Source: a bacterium
GTDB lineage: Bacteria > Bacteroidota > Ignavibacteria > SZUA-365
Assembly: GCA_020444325.1 (NCBI GenBank)
Contig: JAHLLD010000002.1
Span: forward strand, 124,001 to 188,000
DNA: 64,000 nucleotides
Direction of reading: 5' to 3'
The notes beneath the pieces were generated by a model that saw only the letters and a list, made by a program, of their open reading frames with translations, was not told the origin of the DNA and ran no database searches. The position numbers and the translations under genes are program-made. Below are positions 28,763 through 54,606 of this stretch, piece by piece. The first letter of the stretch is position 1, and every line of letters begins with the position of its first letter.

Positions 28763-31492
28763 GTGAAAGCCGTCGGCGCCGCCATATTCCTGAGCTTTTT
28801 ATTTCTTCCCGTCCTGCTTCATGCGCAGGTGACGGATGAAAATGCTGCGTCCCTTACGCGTGACAGCCTGCGTATCATGGAGGACAGCCTGCGGACGAAG
28901 CAGGACAGCCTGCGGGCGGAGGCCGATTCACTCATGGCAATGGCTATAGATTCCATGCGGGTCGCGCAGGACAGTGTCTACGTTTTTCCGGTGTCTAACG
29001 AGGTCGACACCATCATCGTCTACAAGGCTGCAGATTCCGCGCTGTATCGCATGGACGAAAAAACCATGACGATGTACCGGGATGCGGACATCGACTACGG
29101 TACGACTAAAATCAAGGCAGCCCGCATCACGATCAACTGGGATCAATCCACCATCGCCGCCACGGGCATCCCCGATACAAGCAGGGAAGGGAAATTCACC
29201 GACACGCCGGTGTTCAGTGAAGGGGGAGAACAGTACGAGGGAGAGGAAATGACCTACAACTTCAAGACGAAGAAAGGGGTCATCACACGAGGAGAAACAG
29301 CAATCGATGACGGATTCTACCTCGGCGAACGTATCAAACGTGTCTCAGAAAGCGAGTACTTCATCGGTGGGGGACGCTATACCACCTGCGACAATCCCGA
29401 TCACAAGCACTATTACTTCGGTTCCGCGGAAATGAAATTCGTGCCGAACGAGGTTGTCGTCGCACGGCCAATCACCTTCTACGTTGAAGATATCCCCCTG
29501 CTCTGGCTGCCTTTTGCCGTGATACCGAGCAGCGGGGGACGCTCGAGTGGCATCATTTTCCCCGCCTTCGGCTTTGACCAGAGCCGTGGACGCTACCTGA
29601 TCAATGGCGGGTATTACCTGGCCGCGAGCGATTACTGGGATCTTTCACTGACAGGGGACTGGTACTCAAAAGGCGGCTGGCTGGCGCGTGGTGAAGTGCG
29701 CTATTCCCTTCGTTACAATTTCTCTGGAAGCGTCACTGCCAGTTACGGAAGGCAGCGTTTCAACATCGGTAATATTTATCAGGCCGATGACGAGTATTCA
29801 ACGGACTGGAGTCTGAAAATCACGCACAACCAGGAAATCGACCCAACCTCACGTATCACGGCGGATGTCAACATCCTGACAAATTCATACATCAGCAACT
29901 TCAGTAATAACCTCAATCAGCAGCTGCAGACCTCGGTGCGCTCAAGTGCCCTTTACTCGAAGTCATGGGAAGGAACCAACCGGTCGATATCCGTCGGTGT
30001 GCAGCGTGAGCAGAAACTCGATGATGGGACATCCGTCACCACGCTCCCGGATATCACCTTCAATCAGTCCCAGATCTATCCCTTCCGCGGTGAGAACAGT
30101 TTCGGCGATCAGGCCTGGTACGAGATGATCGGTTTCAGCTATACCGGGCAGGCGAAGAATCGCATCCAGGTAAAAGAAGTGCGACGCATCGCAATGTCCG
30201 ACACGACGGTAGGGAACGAGCAGTTTGACAGGCGGGGCGTGCAGCACCGGCTCAGTCTGATATCGACACCGAAATTCGGATTTTTCACGATATCCCCGAG
30301 TTTCAGCTACACCGAGCGCTGGTATGATCATCGCACCGAGCGTTACTACAACGCCGCGGACTCCACGGTGGACTTCAGGGATGTGAGTGGGTTTTTCGCG
30401 GTGCGTACGTTCAATGCCGGACTCTCAGCCAGCACGAAGTTGTACGGCATGCTCGAACCCAATATGCTTGGCGTGATAGGCTTCCGGCACACTCTGCAGC
30501 CCACGATCAGCTACAACTGGAATCCGGATTTTTCCAAAGACAGCTGGGGATATTACCAGTCCTATGTCGATTCCACCGGCGAGGATATTCGCTACGATCC
30601 CTATACCGGGTATTCTTACAATCCTTCCGAGGTGTTCGGCGGAGTCGGTTCCGGGGAGTCACAGACGATCAGCGCGAGGCTTTCGAATATCTTCGAGATG
30701 AAACTCGCTCCACGGGAAGACGACAGCACGCAGACTGCCCGGAAATTCCAGTTGCTTACCTTTGATGCATCGACCAATTACAATCTCGTAAAAGACAGCA
30801 TGAAGCTGGGGAATGTGAACCTCAACTACCGCACCAGCATACAGAATCTCATCGAACTCCGTGGCGGCGCCACGCTTTCGCCCTATGTGTGGGAGAACGA
30901 ACGTGTCGTTTCAAATCCAGACGGCACGGAGACCAGAATTCCCGGTCATGAAGTTGACACCTATCTCTGGGAAGCGGGACAGGGCTTCGCCCGGCTTACC
31001 AGTTTCAATATTTCGCTCAACACGTCCCTGTCGAACAACACCTTTGCAGGGAAGAAGGAAATACAAAAAAACAAGGAAGAGGAGGAGGCCATCGATGAGG
31101 AGGAAGAGGAAGAGCGACCCAAAACCCTCGACCTCAACGCGCCGTATAATTTCAGCATTCCCTGGAACCTGTCCCTCGGTTACGACTATCGCGTCAATCG
31201 CAGCAATCCCACACGCGAAACACGCAACTCGAATCTTCGAGCCAACCTCACATTCAGTCTCACACCAACCTGGCATTTCACTCTCAGCGGTTACTACGAC
31301 ATCTTCAACAAGGAGCTCGGTGCCCCACAGATCAACATCCGCAAAGATTTGCACTGCTGGGAGATGAATTTCCAGTGGCAGCCCGCCGGACCTTATCGCA
31401 GCTTCTATTTCGTCCTTCGCCTCAAAGCGCCGCAGCTCCAGGACATCAAACTCGAAAAACGCGGCTCCGACAGCGGCCGCCTCCGGTATTGA
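28763..31492 (+). CDS. lptD: LPS-assembly outer-membrane protein, LptD family
   Basis: Predicted to insert lipopolysaccharide in the outer leaflet of the outer membrane. After a signal peptide (cleaved near LLHAQ) there is a heptad-like run of DSLR motifs, then the periplasmic OstA/LptD domain at about residues 70-250 (RDADIDYGTTKIKAARITINW, TYNFKTKKGVITRGETAI), whose border to the barrel carries the characteristic RPITFYVEDIPLLWLPFAVIP. A long beta-barrel of about 600 residues follows. An acidic loop (KNKEEEEAIDEEEEEERP) around residue 780 should be surface-exposed. Length fits the Bacteroidota form (~900 residues). GTG start. Confidence 0.9.
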   Translation: MKAVGAAIFLSFLFLPVLLHAQVTDENAASLTRDSLRIMEDSLRTKQDSLRAEADSLMAMAIDSMRVAQDSVYVFPVSNEVDTIIVYKAADSALYRMDEKTMTMYRDADIDYGTTKIKAARITINWDQSTIAATGIPDTSREGKFTDTPVFSEGGEQYEGEEMTYNFKTKKGVITRGETAIDDGFYLGERIKRVSESEYFIGGGRYTTCDNPDHKHYYFGSAEMKFVPNEVVVARPITFYVEDIPLLWLPFAVIPSSGGRSSGIIFPAFGFDQSRGRYLINGGYYLAASDYWDLSLTGDWYSKGGWLARGEVRYSLRYNFSGSVTASYGRQRFNIGNIYQADDEYSTDWSLKITHNQEIDPTSRITADVNILTNSYISNFSNNLNQQLQTSVRSSALYSKSWEGTNRSISVGVQREQKLDDGTSVTTLPDITFNQSQIYPFRGENSFGDQAWYEMIGFSYTGQAKNRIQVKEVRRIAMSDTTVGNEQFDRRGVQHRLSLISTPKFGFFTISPSFSYTERWYDHRTERYYNAADSTVDFRDVSGFFAVRTFNAGLSASTKLYGMLEPNMLGVIGFRHTLQPTISYNWNPDFSKDSWGYYQSYVDSTGEDIRYDPYTGYSYNPSEVFGGVGSGESQTISARLSNIFEMKLAPREDDSTQTARKFQLLTFDASTNYNLVKDSMKLGNVNLNYRTSIQNLIELRGGATLSPYVWENERVVSNPDGTETRIPGHEVDTYLWEAGQGFARLTSFNISLNTSLSNNTFAGKKEIQKNKEEEEAIDEEEEEERPKTLDLNAPYNFSIPWNLSLGYDYRVNRSNPTRETRNSNLRANLTFSLTPTWHFTLSGYYDIFNKELGAPQINIRKDLHCWEMNFQWQPAGPYRSFYFVLRLKAPQLQDIKLEKRGSDSGRLRY

Positions 31493-40697: not shown

Positions 40698-43577
40698 ATG
40701 GCGCAATGTATGAAAGACGCTACGATGCACATATCGCCTCCGCCGTCGTTTCCGGGATTCCGGTACCGCACGCTGCGCTTCGTCATGCTCTGCCTGCTAC
40801 TTGGGGCAATCGCAGTCCCTCAGGTGCAGGCACAATTCCTCCCGTTCGGACGCAACAAAATCACGCATAAGGATTTTGACTGGCAGATCCTGAAGACCGA
40901 GCATTTCGACATCTACTACTATCCCGAGATGACGGAACTCGCCGGCAAGGGCGCCTACTTCGCGGAGAGCAGCTACCGCAAGCTCGAGCGTGTGTTCAAC
41001 TTCACGATGCGCCATCGCATCCCCCTCATTTTTTACAGCTCTCCGCTGCACTTCCAGCAGACGAATGTGACGCCCGGCTTCATCCCGGACGGCGTCGGCG
41101 GTTTTTTTGAGTTCATGAAGGGACGCGTCGTTATTCCCAGTCAGGGTTCGATGGAGCAGTTTCGCCATGTCATCAACCATGAACTCGTGCATGTGTTCAT
41201 GCACAACAAGCTGGCGCATACGATGACAAAACATGGCCAGCGTCCGGACCGCTACCTGCCCCTGTGGTTCGTTGAAGGACTGGCGGAATACTATTCTACG
41301 GATTGGGACAGCCAGGCGGAGATGGTGTTGCGTGACGCTGTGCTCAGCGGTTACTTCGCACCGCTTTCGAACATCTGGGCCATCAATGGAAGCTTCCTGA
41401 TGTACAAGGAAGGGCAGGACGCCCTGGGCTTTATCGCCCGAACATACGGGGAAGAGAAAATCGTGGCCATGATAGACAATTTCTGGGTGTCGGAAGAATT
41501 CAGTGAGGTGTTCCGTTACACGCTTGGACTCTCATATGAGCAGTTCGATCGTGCGTGGGTACGGGATCTGCAGCTGCGGTACTATCCGCTCGTAGAGACG
41601 CATGACAGGCCCTCGGATGTTGCGCAGAGCATTGTGCCATCCGGATTCAACTCCAAACCGGTGTACTATCAGAAGGGTGATTCTTCCTACGTCATTTTCA
41701 TGGCGAACAATACCGGGTACAGTGGGGTGTATAAGAAGTCCCTCACCGGGGGCGAAACCATTGAACTCATCCAGGGAGAAAAAACGGATCGCTTCGAAGC
41801 TTTCCATCTGCTCGGGGGACGCATGGATATCAGCAGGGATGGGGTGCTTGCCTTTGTTACCAAGAGTGGCGCAAGCGACGTGATGCATCTGTACGATGTC
41901 GATGCTGAGAGGCTGCTCGGCACGCTGCGATTCGACGACCTCGTCATGATCAATTCTCCTTCATGGTCTCCGGATGGAAAGCGGGTGTTGTTTGCGGGAC
42001 TCAGTACAGCGGGGCAGTATGACCTGTATGTGGCCGATCCCGCCCGGGGCAGTCTTGATCGACTTACGGACGATTTTTATGATGACCGTGATCCGGCGTG
42101 GTCTCCTGATGGTGATCGCGTGGTGTTCACATCCGACCGGGGTCCCGAAGGACGCCGTGGTGCGAGAGATCTTTACCTGCTCGACATGGATGGCGGAGGC
42201 ATTCAATACCTGACACAGGACAGCATTTCGTACGCGTCGCCTTCCTGGTCCGCCGACGGCACCCTCATTGCCTGTACATCCGACAGGGATGGAACGCAGA
42301 ATGTCCATGTCCTCAACGTGTCGGATGCACGAAGTGTGCTTCCACCCGTCAGGCAGATCACGAAGTTCACCACAGCGGCGTTTGATCCGGTGTGGACGAA
42401 GAAGGGTGGACTGCTGTTCTCCGCATACGATGGCTTCAGCTTCAAAATCCTCGAAATGCCAGATATCGCTTCCCGTATTGATTCATTTTCGCTGGCATAT
42501 CCTGAGCGCATGCCCGCGGAGGTTGCGCCATGGACGACGCCGTCGGTCTCGGGTGAAACGGTGTCTTCACGTCTCGCGTACAGGAAAGAGTACGAAGTCG
42601 ATGTCGCACAGAGTGCCATTTCCACCGATCCGGTGTTCGGAACGCTGGGCGGCGCTGTGCTCAGCATGAGTGATGTACTCGGAGACGATCGCTATTTCTT
42701 TACCGTGTACAACACGGCGCAGACATCCGGTGAATTCCTGTCGAGTTTCAATTTTGCCGTCTCGCGAATGTCGCTCGGGCGAAAGACCCCGTACAGTTAC
42801 GGTGTGTTTCATTACGCGGGTCGGCGTTACGACCTTCTCGATCCTGACCTGTACTTTTACGAACGCGCGTACGGAGGATACTTCGCCGCTGCCTACCCGA
42901 TCTCGAAATTCCGGCGCATTGAGGGCTCTGTCAGTTTCAGCAACTCCGACAAGGAAGCCATTGCCGAGATCCGGCAAAGGAAGGCCCTGCTGCTCACCAA
43001 CTCCGTCAGCTATGTCAGGGACAACGCGCTGTATTATTGGACAGGTCCGATCGACGGCAGCCGCTTCAACGTGACGCTTTCGTATACTACCGATCTGCGA
43101 TATTCCAACGTCAACTACTATTCCGTCATGCTCGATTATCGGCGGTATCTTCGGCTTGCACTGCGCTCCGCTTACGCCATGCGCTACGAGTTCCTGTACA
43201 ATCACGGGAAGGAAGCGCGGAGGTATTTCCTGGGCGGCAGCTGGGATTTGCGCGGATGGCCGCGATGGTCGATTCGCGGTACCAAGCGCTGGCTGACAAG
43301 TCACGAACTGCGCTTCCCCGTGCTCGATCGTGTCGGATTCGATTTCCCCTTCGGCAGCATCAACCTGGGTATTCTCCGCGGCGCACTGTTTTTCGATGCC
43401 GGAAATTCATGGGACAGCGAGTACGGGCAGACACTCGGTGCTGTCGGCGCTGGATTGCGTTTCAGCCTGTTCGGGGTGTTTGTGCTGCGCTATGATTTCG
43501 GGAAACGCATTGAAGACAACTTCACGCACATCCAGAGCGATGTGTTCCACCAGTTCTTTTTCGGTTGGGATTTCTGA
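40698..43577 (+). CDS. Fusion of HExxH metallopeptidase, TolB-type propeller and Omp85-like outer-membrane barrel
   Basis: A 959-residue envelope protein with three recognisable parts. After a signal peptide (ends near QVQAQ, residue 46), residues 60-300 resemble the peptidase MA family: zinc motif HELVH (161-165) and WFVEGLAEYY (Glu193 or Glu197 as third ligand). Residues ~320-600 form a TolB/PD40 propeller with repeats such as SPSWSPDGKRVLF, DPAWSPDGDRVVFTSDR and SPSWSADGTLIACTSDR. The last ~320 residues read as an Omp85 surface-antigen barrel: GGSWDLRGW (compare the RGF/RGY lid-loop motif), LRGALFFDAGNSWD and terminal FHQFFFGWDF. POTRA domains are not evident. The downstream BamB-like gene overlaps its stop. 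Role unknown; membrane protein assembly, secretion or surface proteolysis are candidates. Alternative starts at 40710 and 40725. Confidence 0.82.
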   Translation: MAQCMKDATMHISPPPSFPGFRYRTLRFVMLCLLLGAIAVPQVQAQFLPFGRNKITHKDFDWQILKTEHFDIYYYPEMTELAGKGAYFAESSYRKLERVFNFTMRHRIPLIFYSSPLHFQQTNVTPGFIPDGVGGFFEFMKGRVVIPSQGSMEQFRHVINHELVHVFMHNKLAHTMTKHGQRPDRYLPLWFVEGLAEYYSTDWDSQAEMVLRDAVLSGYFAPLSNIWAINGSFLMYKEGQDALGFIARTYGEEKIVAMIDNFWVSEEFSEVFRYTLGLSYEQFDRAWVRDLQLRYYPLVETHDRPSDVAQSIVPSGFNSKPVYYQKGDSSYVIFMANNTGYSGVYKKSLTGGETIELIQGEKTDRFEAFHLLGGRMDISRDGVLAFVTKSGASDVMHLYDVDAERLLGTLRFDDLVMINSPSWSPDGKRVLFAGLSTAGQYDLYVADPARGSLDRLTDDFYDDRDPAWSPDGDRVVFTSDRGPEGRRGARDLYLLDMDGGGIQYLTQDSISYASPSWSADGTLIACTSDRDGTQNVHVLNVSDARSVLPPVRQITKFTTAAFDPVWTKKGGLLFSAYDGFSFKILEMPDIASRIDSFSLAYPERMPAEVAPWTTPSVSGETVSSRLAYRKEYEVDVAQSAISTDPVFGTLGGAVLSMSDVLGDDRYFFTVYNTAQTSGEFLSSFNFAVSRMSLGRKTPYSYGVFHYAGRRYDLLDPDLYFYERAYGGYFAAAYPISKFRRIEGSVSFSNSDKEAIAEIRQRKALLLTNSVSYVRDNALYYWTGPIDGSRFNVTLSYTTDLRYSNVNYYSVMLDYRRYLRLALRSAYAMRYEFLYNHGKEARRYFLGGSWDLRGWPRWSIRGTKRWLTSHELRFPVLDRVGFDFPFGSINLGILRGALFFDAGNSWDSEYGQTLGAVGAGLRFSLFGVFVLRYDFGKRIEDNFTHIQSDVFHQFFFGWDF

Positions 43578-44791
43578 TGCAGCACAGAGATGATACGACC
43601 GGGGTCCGTCTTGAACAGCACATCGTGCTGCGCCTCCTCGTGTTCTCCGCCGCTGCGCTGCTTCTATCCGGTTGCGGCGCATCCTCCTGGCTCGATGCGC
43701 CATTGCAGGGCGGTGTGGCAGACTGGATGCAGGAGGGAGGGAACGCACAGCGTACGCATACATACGCCTCGGCGCCGGGTGCCGGTGTCGCTGCGTGGGA
43801 ATTTTCCATGGACGCAGCTGCGGGACGTGCGGAAATGCTGCTTCGCGGCGAGACGGTGCTTTTTCCGTCTATTACCATGATTCTGGAAACCGCTCGGCTC
43901 AGCGACGGAGAACAGAACGGCGCATTTCCCGTGGAGGGCATTATCGCGGCGACGCCTGCCATTCTGAACGACAAGCTTTACATCGCGACCGATGGTGGGA
44001 ACGCACATCTCTACTGCTACTCCCTTGAGAATGCAGCGCTGCAATGGAAGCGGCGCACCGGTGCTGTGCAGGCCGGATTGTGCGCGTTTGACGATGCGGT
44101 ATTCGCCGCAACCGTCGGTGGACTCGTCTACCGTTTCTCGGAGGAAGACTCGCTTCCACAGTGGACGCGTGAATTGAAGTCCCCTGTCTATGGTGCGCCG
44201 GCAGCCGCAGACAGCATCCTGGTCGTCGGTACCGCCGCTGGTGATGTGTACGGACTTTCCGTGAACACAGGTGAAACAATGTGGCGCGAGCCGACCTTCG
44301 CCGCAGTGCAGGCCGGTCCGGTAATACAGGGCCCACGGGTTTTCGCCGCGAATCATGAGGGGCGCGTGGTCGCTATTGATCTTCACAGTGGACAGAAACT
44401 CTGGGAACTGGAAACGGGCGTACCGGTATACTATCCAGCGGCCGTGACCTCCGCACGCCTTGTTCTTGCGCTCTCAGACGGAACCCTGCTCGTCGTTGAT
44501 CCACAGAGTGGCACCATCCTGCAGAGCACGGAGATCGGCGAATTGCCCGGTGCGGCGCCCCTGCTGCTGGGCAACACCGTGTACCAGCTTCTCAGAAAAG
44601 GAATACTGCTGCGCATCGACCTCGAAAGCGGGGCGATTGCCGTCTGTGAGACGCTCCCCCTGCGCAGTGAAACCGCCCCGCTGCTCACACCGCGCGGCAT
44701 CGTGCTTGCAGATGAGGATGGAGAAGCCGTCATGAGCGGATGCGATAAAGCTATCGAGGACGTCGGAGCGAAGGCGACAGGTAATCGATGA
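43577..44791 (+). CDS. BamB-like PQQ-propeller lipoprotein
   Basis: A 404-residue lipoprotein: lipobox LLLSGC near residue 32, then a beta-propeller of PQQ-type repeats (GDVYGLSVNTGETMWREP, GRVVAIDLHSGQKLWELETG, GTLLVVDPQSGTILQS). This is the architecture of BamB, the propeller lipoprotein of the outer-membrane protein assembly machine, though many other lipoproteins share it. The ATG overlaps the stop of the Omp85-like gene by one base (TGATG), so the two are translationally coupled, and the next gene overlaps by four bases. Pairing with an Omp85-like protein makes a BamB-type role attractive; that is inference. Confidence 0.8.
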   Translation: MQHRDDTTGVRLEQHIVLRLLVFSAAALLLSGCGASSWLDAPLQGGVADWMQEGGNAQRTHTYASAPGAGVAAWEFSMDAAAGRAEMLLRGETVLFPSITMILETARLSDGEQNGAFPVEGIIAATPAILNDKLYIATDGGNAHLYCYSLENAALQWKRRTGAVQAGLCAFDDAVFAATVGGLVYRFSEEDSLPQWTRELKSPVYGAPAAADSILVVGTAAGDVYGLSVNTGETMWREPTFAAVQAGPVIQGPRVFAANHEGRVVAIDLHSGQKLWELETGVPVYYPAAVTSARLVLALSDGTLLVVDPQSGTILQSTEIGELPGAAPLLLGNTVYQLLRKGILLRIDLESGAIAVCETLPLRSETAPLLTPRGIVLADEDGEAVMSGCDKAIEDVGAKATGNR

Positions 44792-45546
44792 AATATCTCA
44801 TTCCCATATTGCTCACCCTTTGCATTCCCATGCTGACGCATGGACAGGATATCGATCCACCACAGAGCGGATACATCTCGCTGCAGTCGGAACCCTGCGG
44901 CGCGGATGTTTTTTTGGGCGATTCTTTGCTCGGGCACACACCGCTTCGCATCGACCGCAGATATGGGGATTCCGTGCGGGTGTATTTCCCCTCGCGCAGT
45001 GCCTGGAATGCACAGGTGCAGCGCCTTCCGAACGCGCCGCTTCATGCAGGTGAAGGCGTGGTTCTGCTGCGATTCAAGAATACGTTTCAGCTGCGCAGCC
45101 TGCCGCATGGCGCTGCGGTATACCGCGGAGATTCGCTGCTCGGCAGAACACCGCTGGATGTGGACAGGCAGGCAGGTACCCTGCGTCTCGAAGCTGTCGG
45201 CTATCTGGGCGTTGATTTTGATCCCAGGAGCACAACACGTGCAAGCGCCCTGGTCATGTTGCAGCCCCTGCAGGAGAAAGCGATGCATGGTGAGGTGCAG
45301 AGGAACGGAAGCGGATTCCATCTTCCCGCTGCAGACATTCTCGTTCCTGCCGGAGTAGGTCTGCTTGCTGGTGTTGCCGCGGTGATGCTTAAACAGGAAG
45401 CCGATGCGAAATACGATTCCTACCTCTCGACAGGAGACGAGGAACTACTATCTCAAACGAAAAAGTACGATATTTACGCTGGCATCTCCCTGGCGCTCCT
45501 GCAGCTGGGACTGGGATATTTCATCTATCGTCTTTTTGATGAATGA
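44788..45546 (+). CDS. PEGA-domain membrane protein
   Basis: 252 residues: signal peptide (ends near LTHGQ), two PEGA-like repeats (about 28-62 and 92-140, sharing GDSLLGHTPLRIDR and GDSLLGRTPLDVDR), then two hydrophobic segments near the C-terminus (about 185-205 and 230-250) with the sequence AKYDSYLSTGDEELLSQTKKYDIYAGISLALLQLG split between them, reminiscent of DUF5683-type membrane proteins. PEGA domains are found on surface-layer and envelope proteins. The ATG overlaps the previous stop (ATGA). Third member of a tightly coupled envelope operon; precise role unknown. Confidence 0.75.
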   Translation: MKYLIPILLTLCIPMLTHGQDIDPPQSGYISLQSEPCGADVFLGDSLLGHTPLRIDRRYGDSVRVYFPSRSAWNAQVQRLPNAPLHAGEGVVLLRFKNTFQLRSLPHGAAVYRGDSLLGRTPLDVDRQAGTLRLEAVGYLGVDFDPRSTTRASALVMLQPLQEKAMHGEVQRNGSGFHLPAADILVPAGVGLLAGVAAVMLKQEADAKYDSYLSTGDEELLSQTKKYDIYAGISLALLQLGLGYFIYRLFDE

Positions 45547-46929: not shown

Positions 46930-49185
46930 ATGAAGCGCGCAGTATTGCTGCTTCTCCTCCTGTCCACAAGCGCTGCTGCGCAGGTGGGGACGTGGCACAC
47001 CTATACGGATATGAAGAATGTCCGTGACTTTGTCATCGGGGACGATGGACTCTGGGCCGCGTCAAGTGGCGGTGTATTTCTTGAAACAGACGGAACGTAT
47101 ACCCGTTTCACCAATGTGGACGGGCTTTCCGCCATCGATTACATGGCAATCTCGCGAACCGCGGATGGTGCCATCATCGCCGGCGCCAGCAATGGTATGA
47201 TCAATGTGCGTGAAGCGTCCGGCGATTGGTATGAAATCTCCGATATTCAACGTGCAACGGAGTATCCCAGTCGTGGTGTGACTTCCATTACAATGCATGA
47301 CGGACTCGCGTATATCGGGACGGAGTTCGGTGTGGCGGTGTTCGATCATGTGAAAAGGGAATTTGGCGATACCTGGCAGAAGTTCGGGAGTCTGCGTGCG
47401 CAGTTGCCGATCGTCGGCATGTATTTTTCAGGACAGAAACTCTGGGTCGCGACACACGAAGGAGTTGCGGTTGGTGACCTCAACAACATCAATCTGAAAG
47501 ATCCCGCGAACTGGACGGTCTATACCGGAACGGGCAGCGGAGATTTTGGCGAGATAACGGCTCTGTCTGCAATCGGTGGAACGCCGTTGCTCGCAACGAA
47601 GTCGAAACTGTACAGATTTGACGGGCGTCAGTGGGTTGAATTTGTGGGCGCACTGCCCGGAGGTGAAGTGGTTCGCCTCAGGGAGGATGGTGACGAAGCG
47701 CTCTTGCTGATGAATTACAGCCTGTACCGGGTTCGTCAGGATGGCGGTGTTGTGCCGATTGGCGAAAGCGTCAACCTGCCGCATTATCCCACGGGGACGT
47801 TGCTTACTGATGTGCGTATGGACAGCGGCGATATCGTACTCGCGTCCAATCATGGGATTGCCCGCTACGCAGAAGGCAGCGCCTGGGATTTCCGCAGACC
47901 GGACGGCCCGAACTCGAATTTCATTCAGGCGATGGCGGTCGACAGAAATGATGGGATGCTGTGGGTTGCATCCGGTACGGCTGGTGGCGGCAATGGCATC
48001 TACCGTTTCGACGGTACTGACTGGACAAATTATTCCACCGATTCACATCCGGAAATGAAAACGAATGCGGTCACAGATGTTGCTGCCGGAGTGAACGGCA
48101 CGATGTGGTTCGCTACCTGGGGAGAAGGGGTACTCGAACTGAATCCAAACGGAGTGTTCACGGCTTACGACCACAGCAGCGTTCCTGGTTTCCCCGGTAT
48201 CGATACAGATCCGGAATTCGAAGCGGTGCGATCGGTGCGGGTAGACAACAGTGGGGGAGTCTGGACACTGCATTTCATTTCTCCCACATACCTTCTCGGA
48301 TATCGTTCGCCGCAGGGTGCCTGGAGCTTCGTCTCGAACACCGTCATACCCACCCCACTTGCCGTGACAGCGCTGACCATCGATCAGTTCGATCAGAAAT
48401 GGGTACTCGTCGACGATCCCGTTTTCACCGGAGTGTACCTTCTCAATGACAACTATACACCGACGGTGATCGCCGACGATACGTGGACCAAACTGCGTGC
48501 CAATGATGCCAACGCCATCAACGCGGATGCTGATGTTACCGCGGTTGCGGTGGATCTGTTGGGGGATGTATGGATAGGTACGGACCGGGGACTGCGCACG
48601 GTGTTTGATCCAACACAGCCGGATCGTGTTTCCACGACCTGTTTCAACACGCGTTGTAATATCGAGGGACAGTATGTCACCAGCATTGCCATTGATCCGG
48701 TCAACAACAAGTGGATAGGTACGAAAGAAGGTGTGTTCGTGCTTTCCGCTGACGGAAGCGATATCCTCGCACAGTATGATGTGGACAACAGTCCGCTGCT
48801 GGATAATGATATTCAGACCATCTGCATTCACCCGCAAACCGGGGTGGCATATATCGCCACGGCACGCGGACTCTCCAGCGTCGTGACACCGTACGTGCAG
48901 CCGGTTGCCGGATTCACCGATCTGGTTGTTTCTCCGAACCCATTCAAACCCGGTCTCGATGACCGCGTGATGATCGATGGGCTCGTCGAAGGCGCTGTTA
49001 TCAAGATTCTTTCCGTTTCAGGAAATCTCGTGGCAGAACTTACCTCGCCTGGTGGACGTGTGGGATTCTGGGATGGCAGGACAACAAATGGCGAATATGC
49101 CGCATCCGGTGTGTACTTCGTCGTTGCTGCCTCTCCCAATGGTGCTGAAACTGCGACAGCAAAGCTTGCCGTGGTCAAACCTTAG
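46930..49185 (+). CDS. Secreted two-component-regulator-type propeller protein with T9SS sorting domain
   Basis: 751 residues from the ATG at 46930, chosen because it opens a clean signal peptide (MKRAVLLLLLLSTSAAAQ); an upstream in-frame ATG inside ribH adds non-signal residues. The body is a beta-propeller of the 'two-component regulator propeller' type, with repeats like GLWAASSGGVFLE, GMLWVASGTAGGGNGIYRFDG, GTMWFATWGEGVLELN and DVWIGTDRGLRTVF. The last ~80 residues form a T9SS type A domain (DLVVSPNPFKPG, GRVGFWDGRTTNGEYAASGVYFVVA). Predicted to be a surface-anchored or released protein of unknown ligand. Followed by a strong terminator. Confidence 0.88.
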   Translation: MKRAVLLLLLLSTSAAAQVGTWHTYTDMKNVRDFVIGDDGLWAASSGGVFLETDGTYTRFTNVDGLSAIDYMAISRTADGAIIAGASNGMINVREASGDWYEISDIQRATEYPSRGVTSITMHDGLAYIGTEFGVAVFDHVKREFGDTWQKFGSLRAQLPIVGMYFSGQKLWVATHEGVAVGDLNNINLKDPANWTVYTGTGSGDFGEITALSAIGGTPLLATKSKLYRFDGRQWVEFVGALPGGEVVRLREDGDEALLLMNYSLYRVRQDGGVVPIGESVNLPHYPTGTLLTDVRMDSGDIVLASNHGIARYAEGSAWDFRRPDGPNSNFIQAMAVDRNDGMLWVASGTAGGGNGIYRFDGTDWTNYSTDSHPEMKTNAVTDVAAGVNGTMWFATWGEGVLELNPNGVFTAYDHSSVPGFPGIDTDPEFEAVRSVRVDNSGGVWTLHFISPTYLLGYRSPQGAWSFVSNTVIPTPLAVTALTIDQFDQKWVLVDDPVFTGVYLLNDNYTPTVIADDTWTKLRANDANAINADADVTAVAVDLLGDVWIGTDRGLRTVFDPTQPDRVSTTCFNTRCNIEGQYVTSIAIDPVNNKWIGTKEGVFVLSADGSDILAQYDVDNSPLLDNDIQTICIHPQTGVAYIATARGLSSVVTPYVQPVAGFTDLVVSPNPFKPGLDDRVMIDGLVEGAVIKILSVSGNLVAELTSPGGRVGFWDGRTTNGEYAASGVYFVVAASPNGAETATAKLAVVKP

Positions 49186-49265: not shown

Positions 49266-52200
49266 TTACTGCAGGTGAAGCAGTTCCTGCTTCTGCCAGG
49301 TTCCGGAAACAAGTCGCAGGATGTAGCTGCCTGGTGGAAGCTGACCGTAGTTGAGCTGCAGCAAAGCAGTACCGGTCTCCACATGCTCAGCGGGGAAGGT
49401 TTTTCTGAGTCGCCCGAGCATGTCGTAGAGAGCGGGGATGACTTTCGCATTGTTTTCGCTGTGCAGCATTACATGCACGAGCCCACCCCTTGCCGGTTGC
49501 GGCCACAGTCCTATGATATGAAATCCCTGCTCATCCGGGAGCATGTCGATACCTGTGCCAAGATCAATGGTGCGGAAGCGCCACGGAGTATTGTAATCGC
49601 TTGTGCCGCGTCCCGTCGTCACATTGAGTCTCCACCAGTAAAATGTGTAGCTCTTGAGATTGCGCACATACACCGCGGTGCCACGAATGTTTGTACTGTC
49701 GAACACGATGTTGGCGAAGCTGTTGTCGATCGCCACCTGCAGGTGGTAGGCACGGGCCCCATCTGTCGGATACCATTGCAGCAGAGCATTGACCGGGATG
49801 TCCGGGAGTCCGTCAAACGGGGTGAGCTGACGGGGTGGTGGCGGAGCGGTACTGAACTTCCATGGACGAGACCAGTCGGAATAAGCAGCAGATCCGGTGT
49901 TGCCCGAACGCAGCCGCCACCAGTAATCGTCTTCGTGTGAGAGTCCGGCCACCGTGTAGGAGAGTCCCGTCAGTCCACTTTCATTGAGGACGAGATCCGT
50001 AAACTGCTCGTCGCGTGCGACCTGCAGTTGATACCCGCTTGCATTCTCGGCGGCGTACCAGGAGAGGCTGGTCGTCTCGAACTGGCCAAGTGCGCCGTCA
50101 GGAGGTGCCTCGTGCACCGGCGCTGCAAGCGTTGAACCGCTTGTACGGAAACTCCACACCACCGACCATTCACTCTCTGTCGCATCAGCACGCATTGCTT
50201 TTACGCGCCAGTAGTACCGGGTATTGCGGTCGAGCTCAGGTGACTGGAAGCTGGAGACACCCACAACCTGTTCATCGAGCGTCCAGAAAGACATTGCCGG
50301 GTCGCTCGTAACCTGCAGCCGGTAGCTGACTGCTCCGGCGAAGGGAATCCAGCGGAACCGCGGGATTGTGGAAACGCCTTCAGATGCATCCGTCGGGGCG
50401 TAGAGCGTCGGACGCGTGAGCGATTCACTGATTGCGAATGGTTGGGCCGAGACGTCGACACGCGTGCTGTCGTATGTATCACGCACTCGGATGCGGCAGT
50501 GCTCAGAGGGCTCAACGGGAACGATCCAGGAATACCGGTGTAATCCGCCTTCAATATTGACTGCGACGGTTTTCCAGAATGCCCCGTTGTCTGTGCTGTA
50601 TTCGATGTCGATCGAGGAAATGCCTGCGCTTTCCCACAGAATGAGCTTCGTCGTCCCGATCTCCCAACGCTCACCGCCGTCCGGTTTGACCAGGTTGAGG
50701 TATGGCTCCGGGGTGATGGAAAATGCACCATCACTCTCATCAGAGATGCCAGGTACGTCCAGCGCCTCGATGCGCAGCATGCAGAGGTCGGAAATGCGAT
50801 CGGGCACGCTCCAGTCGTATTCGGCGACAACCGCCGTTGTACGGCCGATCTCTTCCCACGCCGTCCCAAGGCTGTCGCTGAAGAGCAGGCGCACGCTGTC
50901 AATTCCCGCACTCTGCCAGCGAATCCGCTGTACGGTGCGGATCTGCCACTGCTCGCCCCCATTGGGGGATATCACTTCGACGGCGGGGATCGGTGTGATA
51001 CGAAATGTCGTTGCACTGCGGTCGAAGATGGACGGATCGTCATGACTTGCGGCGCGCAGCAGGCAGTGGTCCGAAGGCGTCAGGGGGACGCGCCAGGCGT
51101 ATTCGCGCATCGCCGCCTGCACACCACTTTCGATGGGCAGCCAGGTGTTGCCATTGTCCGTTGAATAGGCAAGGTCGAGCGCAGAGACGCCAATACTTTC
51201 CCAGCGAATCCTGTGTTCAGTATCCACGCGCCATTCTTCTCCGCCATCCGGTGCCACAACCTGCACAACGGGCTGCTCGTAGATTGTGAAATCTTCGGGA
51301 CTCTCGTCGGTCAACGCCGGATTACCTGCTGCGCGCACACGCACGCGGCAATGCGTCGAGGTCAGCGCCGGCAGTGTCCACTGCCATGCACCGGCATCGA
51401 CGGCGAGCGGACCCGCAATCTGTGACCAGGAGGCACCGCTGTCGGTGGAGAGATCGATGAAAATCTCGGTGGGACGCTCACCCTGCCAGCGCACGGGAAG
51501 CACCGTGCCGGATTGCCGCACTTCGCCACCGAGTGGGGAAAGCAGTTCAAGCGATGGTGCGAGCGGGAGCGGAAGCATGGCGTCGCGTCGGATCGCGCAA
51601 CTGCTGGACTGCGCGTCATAGTAGGCTTCAAAGTGATAAGTGCCGGCGCGCGGGAGCGTGAGACCGGCCGTGAAGACACCATCATCGGCCAGTGTATCAG
51701 GTGCGGTACCGTCGTCCCGAAGAGGAAGCGGTGTGCGCGTATCCGCACTGTCGACGAGCACCAGTGTCGCGTTCTGCTGCGTAAGTGCCGGGCCACCTTC
51801 GAGCGCGACACTGACGACAGCGGATTCACGAGACAGTGCATCCCGCGGCTGCAGACGTATATGCAGATTCTGCATATTGTCGTGCTCAACGGCGGCCCGC
51901 ACGCCCTGGGGAAGCATGGCGACACCGTCGATCAGGAGCAGCCAGCTGCCCGACTGCGGTGCGATGACTGTCAGCGCTTTCATTTTCAATGCGGCGGATT
52001 CCGTCGCGAATACCGACGTGTCATTGGCCATGGCGGGTGTAACCATGCTGGCGTCGGGTGCGAGCAGTGCGATGCCGGGATCCCCCGTACTCCCGCTGTA
52101 ATCGATAATTACACTCAGTGCCTGCGTCATGCAATCGGTTTCGATTTCCAGGAGTGATGAAATCGCGTCAGGCTCCAGCGCCTGCAGGGGATGGCGCGTA

Positions 52201-54494
52201 TCGAGCAGCATACTTTCATGCGTGGAGATCTGCAGCGTATTGCGGCGCTCGCGCGACCAGAGCATGACGATGTCTCCTGCGGGACGCGCCAGATCAAATC
52301 GCCGCCCGAGGTTGTCCATGCGACTGAGTACGGGATCGGGCAGGATGCTCTGCTGCTGTACCGGGAGCTGCCAGCCATATCCGCTGAGGGTGAGCGCACC
52401 GCCGCGGAAGGGATGCTCCGCTCCTGCGCGGGAAACCGGTATGAAGGTCGTCGCACCGGTGCCAGCCTGCTGCGTCACAGGGTCGCTGCCGAAATACATG
52501 GTGGATGGATAGAGAAACAGTCCGGCGTCACTCAGCGCTTCATAGTGCGAAAGATCCTCCGCGAACAGACGATTGCCTGCGCTCACATCGAGACGGAGAC
52601 GCATGGTCCCATTCACCGGCCAGTTCCCGCCGGAATGCAACTGCAGCGTGACCGAAGGAATCCCTACATCGGTATGCAGTGACAGCGCGAACGGCGGCTG
52701 GTAGAGAGCAGAAGAGAAGCGCAGCGTATCGGGCGCATTGTACACGAGGAATTCACCGATCTGATCTGCAAGGGTGCTGTCGCTGAGCGTAAAGCCGTAG
52801 AGCAGACCAGGCAGCAGATCAGGATCCGGTGCTGCAAGTCGACCTGTCGCATCGTCCGGTGTCTGCAGTGCTTCTGACGCCATACCCGCGAGTATGCCGT
52901 TGGCAGTGCGCGCTGCGGGGAGCATGGCCGAGGAGAGCGCGGTGCTGCCGTCGTCATGCAGGGCGGATTCAACAGGGAGTGGGGGATTGACGGCTGGTGC
53001 ACTGCCTGCGATATTCAAAGCTTCGACACCTGCAGGAAATGACGACGGTGAGAGACGCTGTAGCGCATCGCGTCCCGGCATCAGCTCACGCAGTGCCGGC
53101 GCGTAGCGGTCCATGATATTCGGGAACTGCATTTCCTCAGGTGCTGCGTATGCGAGTCCCGCCCTCAACTGTCCCGCATGCGGGGTGCCGAGAAAGACAA
53201 CTTTGTAGATATCATTCCGGAATGAAACCGGTGCAGTTTCAGCCTGGAAGTACGTCCAATTGCGTGCGGTACCTTCGAGGTAGGAGCGGAGAACGAGTCC
53301 CCCCATACCCTGCGCCGCTGCGGTAGCCACCGTGGTGTCATACATTGACAGCAGCAGCTCAAGATCGCGCGCGAAAAGGAAACCGCTTTCCTCCCAGTTC
53401 TGGTCCGGGGGATAGCAGTACTGCCACACGTCGAAACGGTCGGCATGATTGTGGTCACGTCGCTGCAGGCGCGCGGGATACGAAGTGTATGCGTAGTCAC
53501 GTTTGCCGTTGAAATCTGCATCCAAAGTGTCGGAGGGAAAGATGATATCCTCATCGGCACCCCAGGCGGGATCCGTTCGTCCTCGTCCATGCAACAGTAC
53601 GAAAGGAACCCGATCATGGCGAATATTGTCCGTGCGAAACTGTTCCGCCCCTGCCGCACCACTGTCAGCAGAAAGAGGGGGAAGCAGCATGGTTGTCTGA
53701 TACAGCGGATATTGCACCGCATCCCCGCTCATCGCGAGCGTATGCAGATCGGCGCCGTATTGCCAGGGGAATCTGAGATAGCGTGGAAATACCCATTGCG
53801 AAGATGCGGAGGTCTCGCGTGGATGATCCTGGTACGAGACCAGGTCGCGATGGAGTATCACATAAGCATCTTTTCTTCGTCCGCGAATGAAATCCTTGAG
53901 CGGATACCAGAAACCGATTTTCCCGAGGACGTGCATATCTGCATCCAGCAGCAGCAGGTCGGTCATGTTCTGGGAAAGCACATTGAGGAATTTTCCCTTG
54001 TAGAAGTTGGCAATGCCATTCGTGTCCACCGGCATACGGAGGGAGACGGGGGATTGCGGTGTAGGCGAAGCGCTGCCTGCATATCCCCAGAGTTCGACGA
54101 ATTTCACAATAGGCGTGTTCTTTTCCACCACGTGAATACTCACGGCGATGTCAGTTTCCTCTACGGGAGCAACCTCCACGAAATCCACATATCGCGCAGT
54201 ATCGTATCCGCTGCTGTCCTGCACCACGAGGGTGACGGACTTGCGTCCCGGAGTCTCATACGTGAAGAACGGATTCTTCTCCTGCGAATCGGCAATGCCG
54301 TCGTCATCGAGATCCCAGCCGCGCCAGATCACGGAATCCGACGGGGTGGACTGGTCGAAAAACTGCACACTGAGCGGCGCAGCCCCCGAATCCACATCAA
54401 CCGTGAACGCCGCATGCACCTGCGCATGCAGAGGAACGGAAAGCGTGAAAAACATCAAACATGTGAGAGTGGATCGAATCTGCCGCAGACTCAT
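49266..54494 (-). CDS. Giant T9SS-secreted multidomain protein with PKD, degenerate lipase, Ig-like and fibronectin-type repeats
   Basis: 1742 residues from the ATG that opens a signal peptide (SLRQIRSTLTCLMFFTLSVPLHAQ). Order: a PKD domain (AAPLSVQFFDQST...WDLDDDGIADS); an alpha/beta-hydrolase lipase-like region with PFVLLHGRG and nucleophile elbow AAQGMGGLVLRSYL, where the usual GHSMGG serine is Gly; a beta-rich middle; four tandem ~95-residue Ig-like repeats (each P.GGE.W..T..IRW...G); three fibronectin III-like repeats with YYWRV/WWRL; and a C-terminal T9SS-type sorting domain (GLWPQPARGG, YDMLGRLRKTFPAEHV, LPPGSYILRLVSG). Probably a surface adhesin or binding protein. No partner gene adjoins it on the same strand. 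Confidence 0.85.
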   Translation of the reverse strand: MSLRQIRSTLTCLMFFTLSVPLHAQVHAAFTVDVDSGAAPLSVQFFDQSTPSDSVIWRGWDLDDDGIADSQEKNPFFTYETPGRKSVTLVVQDSSGYDTARYVDFVEVAPVEETDIAVSIHVVEKNTPIVKFVELWGYAGSASPTPQSPVSLRMPVDTNGIANFYKGKFLNVLSQNMTDLLLLDADMHVLGKIGFWYPLKDFIRGRRKDAYVILHRDLVSYQDHPRETSASSQWVFPRYLRFPWQYGADLHTLAMSGDAVQYPLYQTTMLLPPLSADSGAAGAEQFRTDNIRHDRVPFVLLHGRGRTDPAWGADEDIIFPSDTLDADFNGKRDYAYTSYPARLQRRDHNHADRFDVWQYCYPPDQNWEESGFLFARDLELLLSMYDTTVATAAAQGMGGLVLRSYLEGTARNWTYFQAETAPVSFRNDIYKVVFLGTPHAGQLRAGLAYAAPEEMQFPNIMDRYAPALRELMPGRDALQRLSPSSFPAGVEALNIAGSAPAVNPPLPVESALHDDGSTALSSAMLPAARTANGILAGMASEALQTPDDATGRLAAPDPDLLPGLLYGFTLSDSTLADQIGEFLVYNAPDTLRFSSALYQPPFALSLHTDVGIPSVTLQLHSGGNWPVNGTMRLRLDVSAGNRLFAEDLSHYEALSDAGLFLYPSTMYFGSDPVTQQAGTGATTFIPVSRAGAEHPFRGGALTLSGYGWQLPVQQQSILPDPVLSRMDNLGRRFDLARPAGDIVMLWSRERRNTLQISTHESMLLDTRHPLQALEPDAISSLLEIETDCMTQALSVIIDYSGSTGDPGIALLAPDASMVTPAMANDTSVFATESAALKMKALTVIAPQSGSWLLLIDGVAMLPQGVRAAVEHDNMQNLHIRLQPRDALSRESAVVSVALEGGPALTQQNATLVLVDSADTRTPLPLRDDGTAPDTLADDGVFTAGLTLPRAGTYHFEAYYDAQSSSCAIRRDAMLPLPLAPSLELLSPLGGEVRQSGTVLPVRWQGERPTEIFIDLSTDSGASWSQIAGPLAVDAGAWQWTLPALTSTHCRVRVRAAGNPALTDESPEDFTIYEQPVVQVVAPDGGEEWRVDTEHRIRWESIGVSALDLAYSTDNGNTWLPIESGVQAAMREYAWRVPLTPSDHCLLRAASHDDPSIFDRSATTFRITPIPAVEVISPNGGEQWQIRTVQRIRWQSAGIDSVRLLFSDSLGTAWEEIGRTTAVVAEYDWSVPDRISDLCMLRIEALDVPGISDESDGAFSITPEPYLNLVKPDGGERWEIGTTKLILWESAGISSIDIEYSTDNGAFWKTVAVNIEGGLHRYSWIVPVEPSEHCRIRVRDTYDSTRVDVSAQPFAISESLTRPTLYAPTDASEGVSTIPRFRWIPFAGAVSYRLQVTSDPAMSFWTLDEQVVGVSSFQSPELDRNTRYYWRVKAMRADATESEWSVVWSFRTSGSTLAAPVHEAPPDGALGQFETTSLSWYAAENASGYQLQVARDEQFTDLVLNESGLTGLSYTVAGLSHEDDYWWRLRSGNTGSAAYSDWSRPWKFSTAPPPPRQLTPFDGLPDIPVNALLQWYPTDGARAYHLQVAIDNSFANIVFDSTNIRGTAVYVRNLKSYTFYWWRLNVTTGRGTSDYNTPWRFRTIDLGTGIDMLPDEQGFHIIGLWPQPARGGLVHVMLHSENNAKVIPALYDMLGRLRKTFPAEHVETGTALLQLNYGQLPPGSYILRLVSGTWQKQELLHLQ

Positions 54495-54606
54495 CGTCAG
54501 CTCCGCGTCCGTTGCGAAAAGGCGAGCAAAATAGTTGTAATTAAGCACATTACACCATTTGCCTGAAGTTAAACATAAAACGCAACCCGATCAACTCCTT
54601 CAATGG

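What the first reader, a model, noticed from the sequence alone, without database searches (positions are those of the whole stretch)
40698..45546. Envelope operon joining a peptidase-propeller-Omp85 fusion, a BamB-like lipoprotein and a PEGA membrane protein
One protein appears to carry an intact HExxH...E metallopeptidase site, a TolB/PD40 propeller and a C-terminal Omp85-like barrel with an RGW lid motif, in place of POTRA domains. Its stop overlaps a BamB-type propeller lipoprotein, which overlaps a PEGA protein. The strict coupling suggests one machine that could insert, secrete or cleave outer-membrane proteins. Each domain family is known; I do not know a described system with this set.
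Basis: partly seen in the sequence, partly recalled or inferred. Interest (0 to 1): 0.68.

Follow-up and report, generated by a model that had tools for sequence, protein, structure and literature searches.

The report
Conserved outer-membrane peptidase-barrel operon
Three neighbouring genes encode an outer-membrane protein that fuses a zinc-peptidase, a beta-propeller and a BamA-type barrel, together with two partner proteins; the set has been inherited together across a large bacterial group, yet I found no description of what the set does.

Summary
Gene A (40698-43577) encodes a signal peptide, a gluzincin zinc-peptidase domain, a TolB-like propeller and a 16-strand Omp85 barrel, with no POTRA found. 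Gene B is a BamB-like propeller lipoprotein; gene C is a PEGA protein with two C-terminal membrane helices. Stops and starts overlap (TGATG, ATGA). Structure prediction matches TolB (Z 26.8), BamA (Z about 22) and, for the first third alone, M9 collagenase (Z 17). The catalytic HExxH plus Glu is present in all 49 A-type orthologues examined. A-B-C order recurs across the class, in other families of the phylum and in Neomarinimicrobiota. In 119 genomes of the class, A and B occur together in 75 and are both absent in 44, with no discordant genome, even though they are unlinked in 23. LpxC and PorZ do not follow this pattern. The propeller-barrel fusion is a known, uncharacterised kind ("WD40-Omp85", 2014), and a paralogue with the same three parts is widespread. 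What appears undescribed is the conserved peptidase site and the obligate A-B(-C) partnership. Best guess: a peptidase-coupled outer-membrane assembly or quality-control machine. That function is inferred, not shown. It is not BamA and B is not BamB; the genome has a separate BamA.

The parts
40698..43577 (+). Gene A, 959 aa: signal peptide, gluzincin-type peptidase domain, TolB-like six-bladed propeller, Omp85 16-strand barrel
   Evidence: Pfam/NCBIfam, AlphaFold model pLDDT 79, pTM 0.76, fold search, orthologue alignment A1
40698..40832 (+). N-terminal region and signal peptide of A, probable cleavage A45|Q46 (Gln invariant in 29 orthologues)
   Evidence: Hydrophobic segment 25-43, Q46 invariant; Gln after signal-peptidase-I sites is common in this kind of bacterium (PMC5837995). 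True start codon not settled
40875..41603 (+). Peptidase domain of A, about residues 60-302, with H161-E162-x-x-H165 and E193
   Evidence: Separate AlphaFold model pLDDT 86, pTM 0.85; M9 collagenase Z 17.0; motif in 49 of 49 A-type proteins
41604..42512 (+). TolB-like propeller of A, about residues 303-605
   Evidence: PD40, TolB matches in PDB by sequence and by fold Z 26.8
42585..43574 (+). Omp85 barrel of A, about residues 630-959, with R852-G853 lid motif, E870-x-R872 and D900-x-G902
   Evidence: PF01103 over cut-off, 16 strands in the model, BamA barrels Z about 22-24, invariant motif residues
43577..44791 (+). Gene B, 404 aa: lipoprotein (LLLSGC lipobox) with PQQ_2/BamB-like propeller
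   Evidence: PQQ_2, lipobox Cys C33 invariant in 27 orthologues, strict co-occurrence with A
44788..45546 (+). Gene C, 252 aa: PEGA repeats and a C-terminal pair of hydrophobic helices
   Evidence: PEGA; hydrophobic segments 183-201 and 229-247, two such segments in 19 of 21 orthologues; alignment A3

Best explanation
A is an outer-membrane protein of the propeller-Omp85 kind that carries, on the periplasmic side, an active zinc endopeptidase and a TolB-like propeller. B is its lipoprotein partner, anchored in the inner leaflet of the outer membrane, where its propeller serves as docking or client-receiving subunit. C sits in the inner membrane with periplasmic PEGA repeats and probably tethers or signals to the complex. 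The likely job is assembly and quality control at the outer membrane: clients are bound by the two propellers, passed to the Omp85 barrel for insertion or passage, and cut by the built-in peptidase if they need processing or stall. In effect this joins in one chain what BAM and the soluble peptidase BepA do apart in E. coli. Shown: sequences, predicted folds, conserved catalytic residues, operon, co-inheritance of A and B. Inferred: topology, zinc and catalysis, A-B contact, clients, function.
For: Intact HExxH plus Glu in 49 of 49 A-type proteins, and the peptidase domain as conserved as the barrel (mean pairwise identity 0.60 and 0.60; propeller 0.40; B and C 0.26). The Glu strand aligns with the matching stretch of a collagenase and of glutamyl aminopeptidase. 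Omp85 fold with lid motif. A and B co-occur 75/0/0/44 in the class, including at least five families where some members lack both. A-B-C adjacency in 19 of 20 loci outside the class, the other cut by a contig end, and in a Neomarinimicrobiota locus. BepA precedent: a periplasmic zinc peptidase that promotes or degrades LptD on the BAM complex (PMC8423444). [quoted passage not shown]
Against: No client, no interaction data and no phenotype. The genome has its own BamA with POTRA domains, so general outer-membrane protein insertion does not need A. 44 of 119 class genomes lack A and B, so the job is not essential to the class. The peptidase could cut something unrelated to barrel assembly.
Confidence: 0.42

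Rival explanations
1. A is a dedicated export device for one or a few clients, working like PlpD or two-partner secretion: the barrel passes a client (or the peptidase domain itself) to the surface, with the peptidase trimming the client on the way and B recruiting it.
For: Patatin-Omp85 proteins such as PlpD are proposed to secrete their enzyme domain (PMC4104836), and the same genome has a patatin-Omp85 protein. The patchy distribution of A-B (75 of 119 genomes) fits a specialised function.
Against: No client gene follows the operon consistently: the genes after A-B-C change between families while A-B-C stay. The TolB-like propeller lies between peptidase and barrel, which suggests a periplasmic position.
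Confidence: 0.22
2. A-B-C is a structural, Tol-Pal-like bridge between outer and inner membrane; the peptidase fold is only a binding module, or its cutting is incidental.
For: TolB-like propeller in A, a lipoprotein propeller in B, and an inner-membrane PEGA protein C. PEGA repeats are commonly regarded as surface-layer or scaffold-like (own knowledge).
Against: All three zinc-site residues are kept in 49 of 49 proteins and in 14 of 14 paralogues, which is not expected of a degenerate scaffold. C is not always present: family f9 has B without C.
Confidence: 0.2
3. The link to type IX secretion is real: A-B-C is an accessory of that system, since porZ lies three genes downstream in the window and in many relatives.
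For: PorZ is encoded at 46933-49185 and the order A-B-C-PHP-ribH-porZ is shared by many relatives.
Against: PorZ occurs in 39 of 41 relatives, with or without A; outside the class the neighbours differ; the intervening genes are riboflavin synthesis and a PHP phosphoesterase.
Confidence: 0.06
4. Adjacency is only shared ancestry and the proteins do not work together.
For: Neighbouring housekeeping genes (PPS, ptsI, the phosphoglucose/phosphomannose isomerase gene) are also partly conserved in order.
Against: A-B-C stay together where neighbours have changed, and A and B are gained or lost together even when unlinked in 23 genomes.
Confidence: 0.05

Closest known systems
WD40-Omp85 subfamily (Heinz and Lithgow 2014, PMC4104836)
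   Same: N-terminal TolB-like propeller joined to an Omp85 barrel, no POTRA; function unknown
   Different: The main text of that paper mentions no peptidase domain in this subfamily, no lipoprotein partner and no PEGA partner; its supplements could not be read
Paralogue in the same genome and widely in the phylum (G000:C2:375939-378650, about 1067 aa)
   Same: Same order: peptidase with HExxH plus Glu, PD40 propeller, barrel; 28% identical
   Different: No B or C beside it; present in nearly all relatives, including those that lack A
BamA and BamB of the BAM complex
   Same: Omp85 barrel with lid motif; propeller lipoprotein
   Different: A has no POTRA, to which BamB binds; a separate BamA is encoded; B scores 96 bits against a BamB cut-off of 285
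BepA (M48 peptidase acting on LptD at the BAM complex)
   Same: Periplasmic zinc peptidase tied to outer-membrane barrel assembly (function assumed for A)
   Different: Separate soluble protein of another peptidase family; A's domain resembles M9/M1 and is fused to the barrel
PlpD (patatin-Omp85)
   Same: Enzyme domain fused to an Omp85 barrel
   Different: Lipase, with POTRA; no propeller
TolB of Tol-Pal
   Same: Propeller fold, Z about 26
   Different: TolB is a free periplasmic protein; A lacks its N-terminal domain and scores 135 bits against a cut-off of 343

Membership tests
Omp85 superfamily | C-terminal 16-strand barrel related to BamA | tested here: met
   PF01103 43.5 bits over cut-off 24; 16 strands; BamA barrels Z about 22-24
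Omp85 superfamily | Lid-loop RG(F/Y/W) motif | tested here: met
   R852-G853 invariant in 29 orthologues
WD40-Omp85 subfamily | TolB-like propeller in front of the barrel | tested here: met
   PD40 1.2e-18; TolB Z 26.8
WD40-Omp85 subfamily | No POTRA domain | tested here: met
   No POTRA match at E<=1; the part before the propeller is a peptidase fold
WD40-Omp85 subfamily | Clustering of the barrel sequence with the 2014 set | not testable with these tools
   The 2014 sequence list is in supplements that could not be opened
BamA | POTRA domains plus barrel, equivalog score | tested here: not met
   TIGR03303 26.6 bits against cut-off 297 and no POTRA; the true BamA is elsewhere (346 bits)
BamB | Equivalog score of TIGR03300 | tested here: not met
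   96 bits against cut-off 285
BamB | Lipoprotein with PQQ-type propeller | tested here: met
   Lipobox Cys invariant in 27 orthologues; PQQ_2
BamB | Binds BamA POTRA3 | not testable with these tools
   Needs a binding experiment; the neighbour A has no POTRA
Gluzincin metallopeptidases (clan MA, Peptidase_MA_2) | HExxH plus downstream Glu zinc ligand | tested here: met
   49 of 49 A-type and 14 of 14 paralogues
Gluzincin metallopeptidases (clan MA, Peptidase_MA_2) | Fold | tested here: met
   M9 collagenase Z 17.0, 228 residues, 3.4 A; M1 Z about 13-14
Gluzincin metallopeptidases (clan MA, Peptidase_MA_2) | Curated Pfam score | tested here: inconclusive
   Window protein 27.2 bits against cut-off 32.4; 29 of 29 orthologues match at E<=0.01, best 2.6e-11
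Gluzincin metallopeptidases (clan MA, Peptidase_MA_2) | Zinc binding and proteolysis | not testable with these tools
   Needs biochemistry
TolB | Equivalog score and free periplasmic form | tested here: not met
   135 bits against cut-off 343, and fused to a barrel
PEGA proteins (C) | PEGA domain over cut-off | tested here: met
   36.7 bits against cut-off 20.8; 20 of 21 orthologues

The most novel reading that the evidence does not exclude
A-B(-C) is a second, optional outer-membrane machine of the Bacteroidota and relatives, in which a zinc endopeptidase is built into an Omp85 barrel protein and works with its own lipoprotein and an inner-membrane partner: a peptidase-coupled insertase or translocon spanning the envelope.
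Probability: 0.35. Interest if true: 0.8.

Novelty: new variant of a known kind. Interest (0 to 1): 0.55.

Why it matters
The propeller-Omp85 proteins have been a named group of unknown function since 2014. This work gives them a testable handle: a conserved peptidase site, a fixed lipoprotein partner and a likely inner-membrane partner, with a clear presence/absence pattern over genomes. If the built-in peptidase acts during barrel-dependent assembly or export, it would be a new way of coupling proteolysis to the outer membrane, in a phylum whose BAM complex is already known to differ from that of E. coli (PMC12611786).

Tried and rejected
Link to type IX secretion through the nearby porZ: rejected as a main explanation, because PorZ is present in 39 of 41 relatives, with or without A. 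Link to lipopolysaccharide synthesis, suggested by B lying beside what look like lipid A acyltransferase and heptosyltransferase genes in family f9 (named by eye, not scanned): not supported, because LpxC is present in 40 of 41 relatives. A as the genome's BamA, and B as BamB: rejected by curated scores and a separate BamA. A as unique fusion: rejected, paralogues share it. First Fisher test gave two genomes with A and no B; both turned out to be contig ends with a partial B directly after A. The p-value of 1e-30 is not corrected for relatedness and should not be quoted as a probability. In the fold list of the whole model, propeller and barrel crowd out the peptidase, so it was folded alone. 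Paper searches for peptidase, propeller and Omp85 together, or PEGA with BamB, found no description; the library holds only open-licence papers. Promoter scan uninformative.

Full report
What is there. The window holds three overlapping genes on the + strand: A 40698-43577, B 43577-44791, C 44788-45546. A's stop TGA shares its last base with B's ATG, and B's stop overlaps C's ATG as ATGA. Upstream lie a polyprenyl synthase, ptsI, and two sugar-phosphate isomerase genes; downstream a PHP phosphoesterase, ribH and porZ. Names of the upstream polyprenyl synthase, ptsI and first isomerase genes rest on reading their translations, not on a family scan.

Domains of A. Pfam gives Peptidase_MA_2 (108-288, 4e-6, below its cut-off), PD40 (1.2e-18) and Omp85 (739-939, 3.8e-11, above cut-off); over 29 orthologues PD40 and Peptidase_MA_2 match all and Omp85 matches 22. 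No POTRA is matched. An AlphaFold model from 29 orthologues has pLDDT 79 and pTM 0.76 and shows 16 strands from residue 633. Its closest solved folds are TolB for 303-596 (Z 26.8) and BamA/Sam50-type barrels for 632-959 (Z about 22-24). The first third, folded alone from 42 sequences (pLDDT 86), matches M9 collagenases (Z 17.0) and M1 aminopeptidases (Z about 13-14). By profile, the stretch around E193 aligns with the corresponding stretch of a collagenase (WWSEGIAEY) and of glutamyl aminopeptidase (LWLNEGFA).

Active site. H161-E162-x-x-H165 and E193 are invariant in the 29 aligned orthologues, and the motif is complete in 49 of 49 A-type proteins and 14 of 14 paralogues. Peptidase and barrel are equally conserved (mean pairwise identity 0.60 each), more than the propeller (0.40) or B and C (0.26). 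This argues for real catalysis but does not prove it.

Topology, inferred. A has a hydrophobic signal segment (25-43) and an invariant Gln after the probable cleavage site, as is common for signal-peptidase-I substrates in Bacteroidetes; Ignavibacterium album has a Q-value of 77% (PMC5837995). B has a lipobox whose Cys is invariant in 27 orthologues and no run of acidic residues after it (read from the sequence), so I place it on the periplasmic side. C has PEGA repeats and two hydrophobic C-terminal segments, in 19 of 21 orthologues.

Gene order elsewhere. Within the class A-B-C recurs in most loci examined, also where the following genes differ. Outside the class I fetched 20 A-type loci from other families of the phylum: B and C follow A in 19, and in the last the contig ends after B. 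One Neomarinimicrobiota locus (L035) has A, B and a short C without PEGA; another (L036) has A, a C-like protein and only a weak B trace. In families f7, f9 and f15 of the class A is not next to B; there B mostly keeps C beside it, except in f9.

Co-inheritance. In 119 genomes of the class (90% complete or more), 75 hold an A-type protein (profile score 897 bits or more) and 73 of these a full-length B; the two exceptions are contig ends with a partial B directly after A, so 75 of 75. None of the 44 genomes without A has B at E<=1e-60. A and B lie side by side in 50 of 73, or 52 of 75 with the two truncated ones, and are unlinked in 23. At least five families (f4, f7, f9, f11, f19) contain both genomes with the pair and genomes without it, so the pattern is not one event. 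As negative controls LpxC and PorZ are almost universal. The Fisher value (about 1e-30) ignores relatedness.

Paralogues. The genome encodes a second protein with the same order (1067 aa, 28% identical, HELVH kept) and a third more distant one with peptidase and propeller matches (C18, 1033 aa). The second kind is found in nearly all relatives and in many families of the phylum that have no A-type. So the fusion itself is common here, and it is the A-type with its partners that is restricted. The genome also has a true BamA, a TamL-like protein and a patatin-Omp85.

Known or not. Heinz and Lithgow (PMC4104836) defined ten Omp85/TpsB subfamilies, including WD40-Omp85, whose propeller is closest to TolB, and proposed a BamA-BamB-like role. 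The word peptidase does not occur in the main text; their 'Metallo' group bears PF00149, a different domain. The 2025 structure paper of a Bacteroidota BAM complex mentions neither propeller nor peptidase nor BamB (PMC12611786). I found no paper on A-B-C in the open library.

Function. Best guess: a peptidase-coupled assembly or quality-control machine at the outer membrane, by comparison with BepA, which promotes or degrades LptD on the BAM complex (PMC8423444). Confidence 0.42. Rivals are client-specific export, a structural bridge, and a type IX accessory. What is shown is the anatomy and the partnership over evolution; clients, contacts and activity are not shown.

Noticed in passing
46933-49185: PorZ of type IX secretion (NF052228, 358 bits, over cut-off), three genes after C; near-universal in relatives and not tied to A.
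   Followed up: yes
28763-31492: LptD-like protein (PF19838, 3e-128) about 9 kb upstream of A.
   Followed up: no
49266-54548 (- strand): 1760-aa protein with PKD and Ig-like repeats; its sequence also suggests a lipase-like stretch and a C-terminal sorting signal, which Pfam did not report.
   Followed up: partly
20905-23430: 841-aa protein with Sortilin/BNR repeats, possibly secreted.
   Followed up: no
G000:C10:57500-62000 (L110): Patatin-POTRA-Omp85 protein (PlpD-like) elsewhere in the same genome, one of about eleven Omp85 proteins over the Pfam cut-off.
   Followed up: partly
L081, L082, L085: In family f9 B lacks C and sits beside genes that look like a lipid A acyltransferase and a heptosyltransferase (named by eye from the sequence).
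   Followed up: partly
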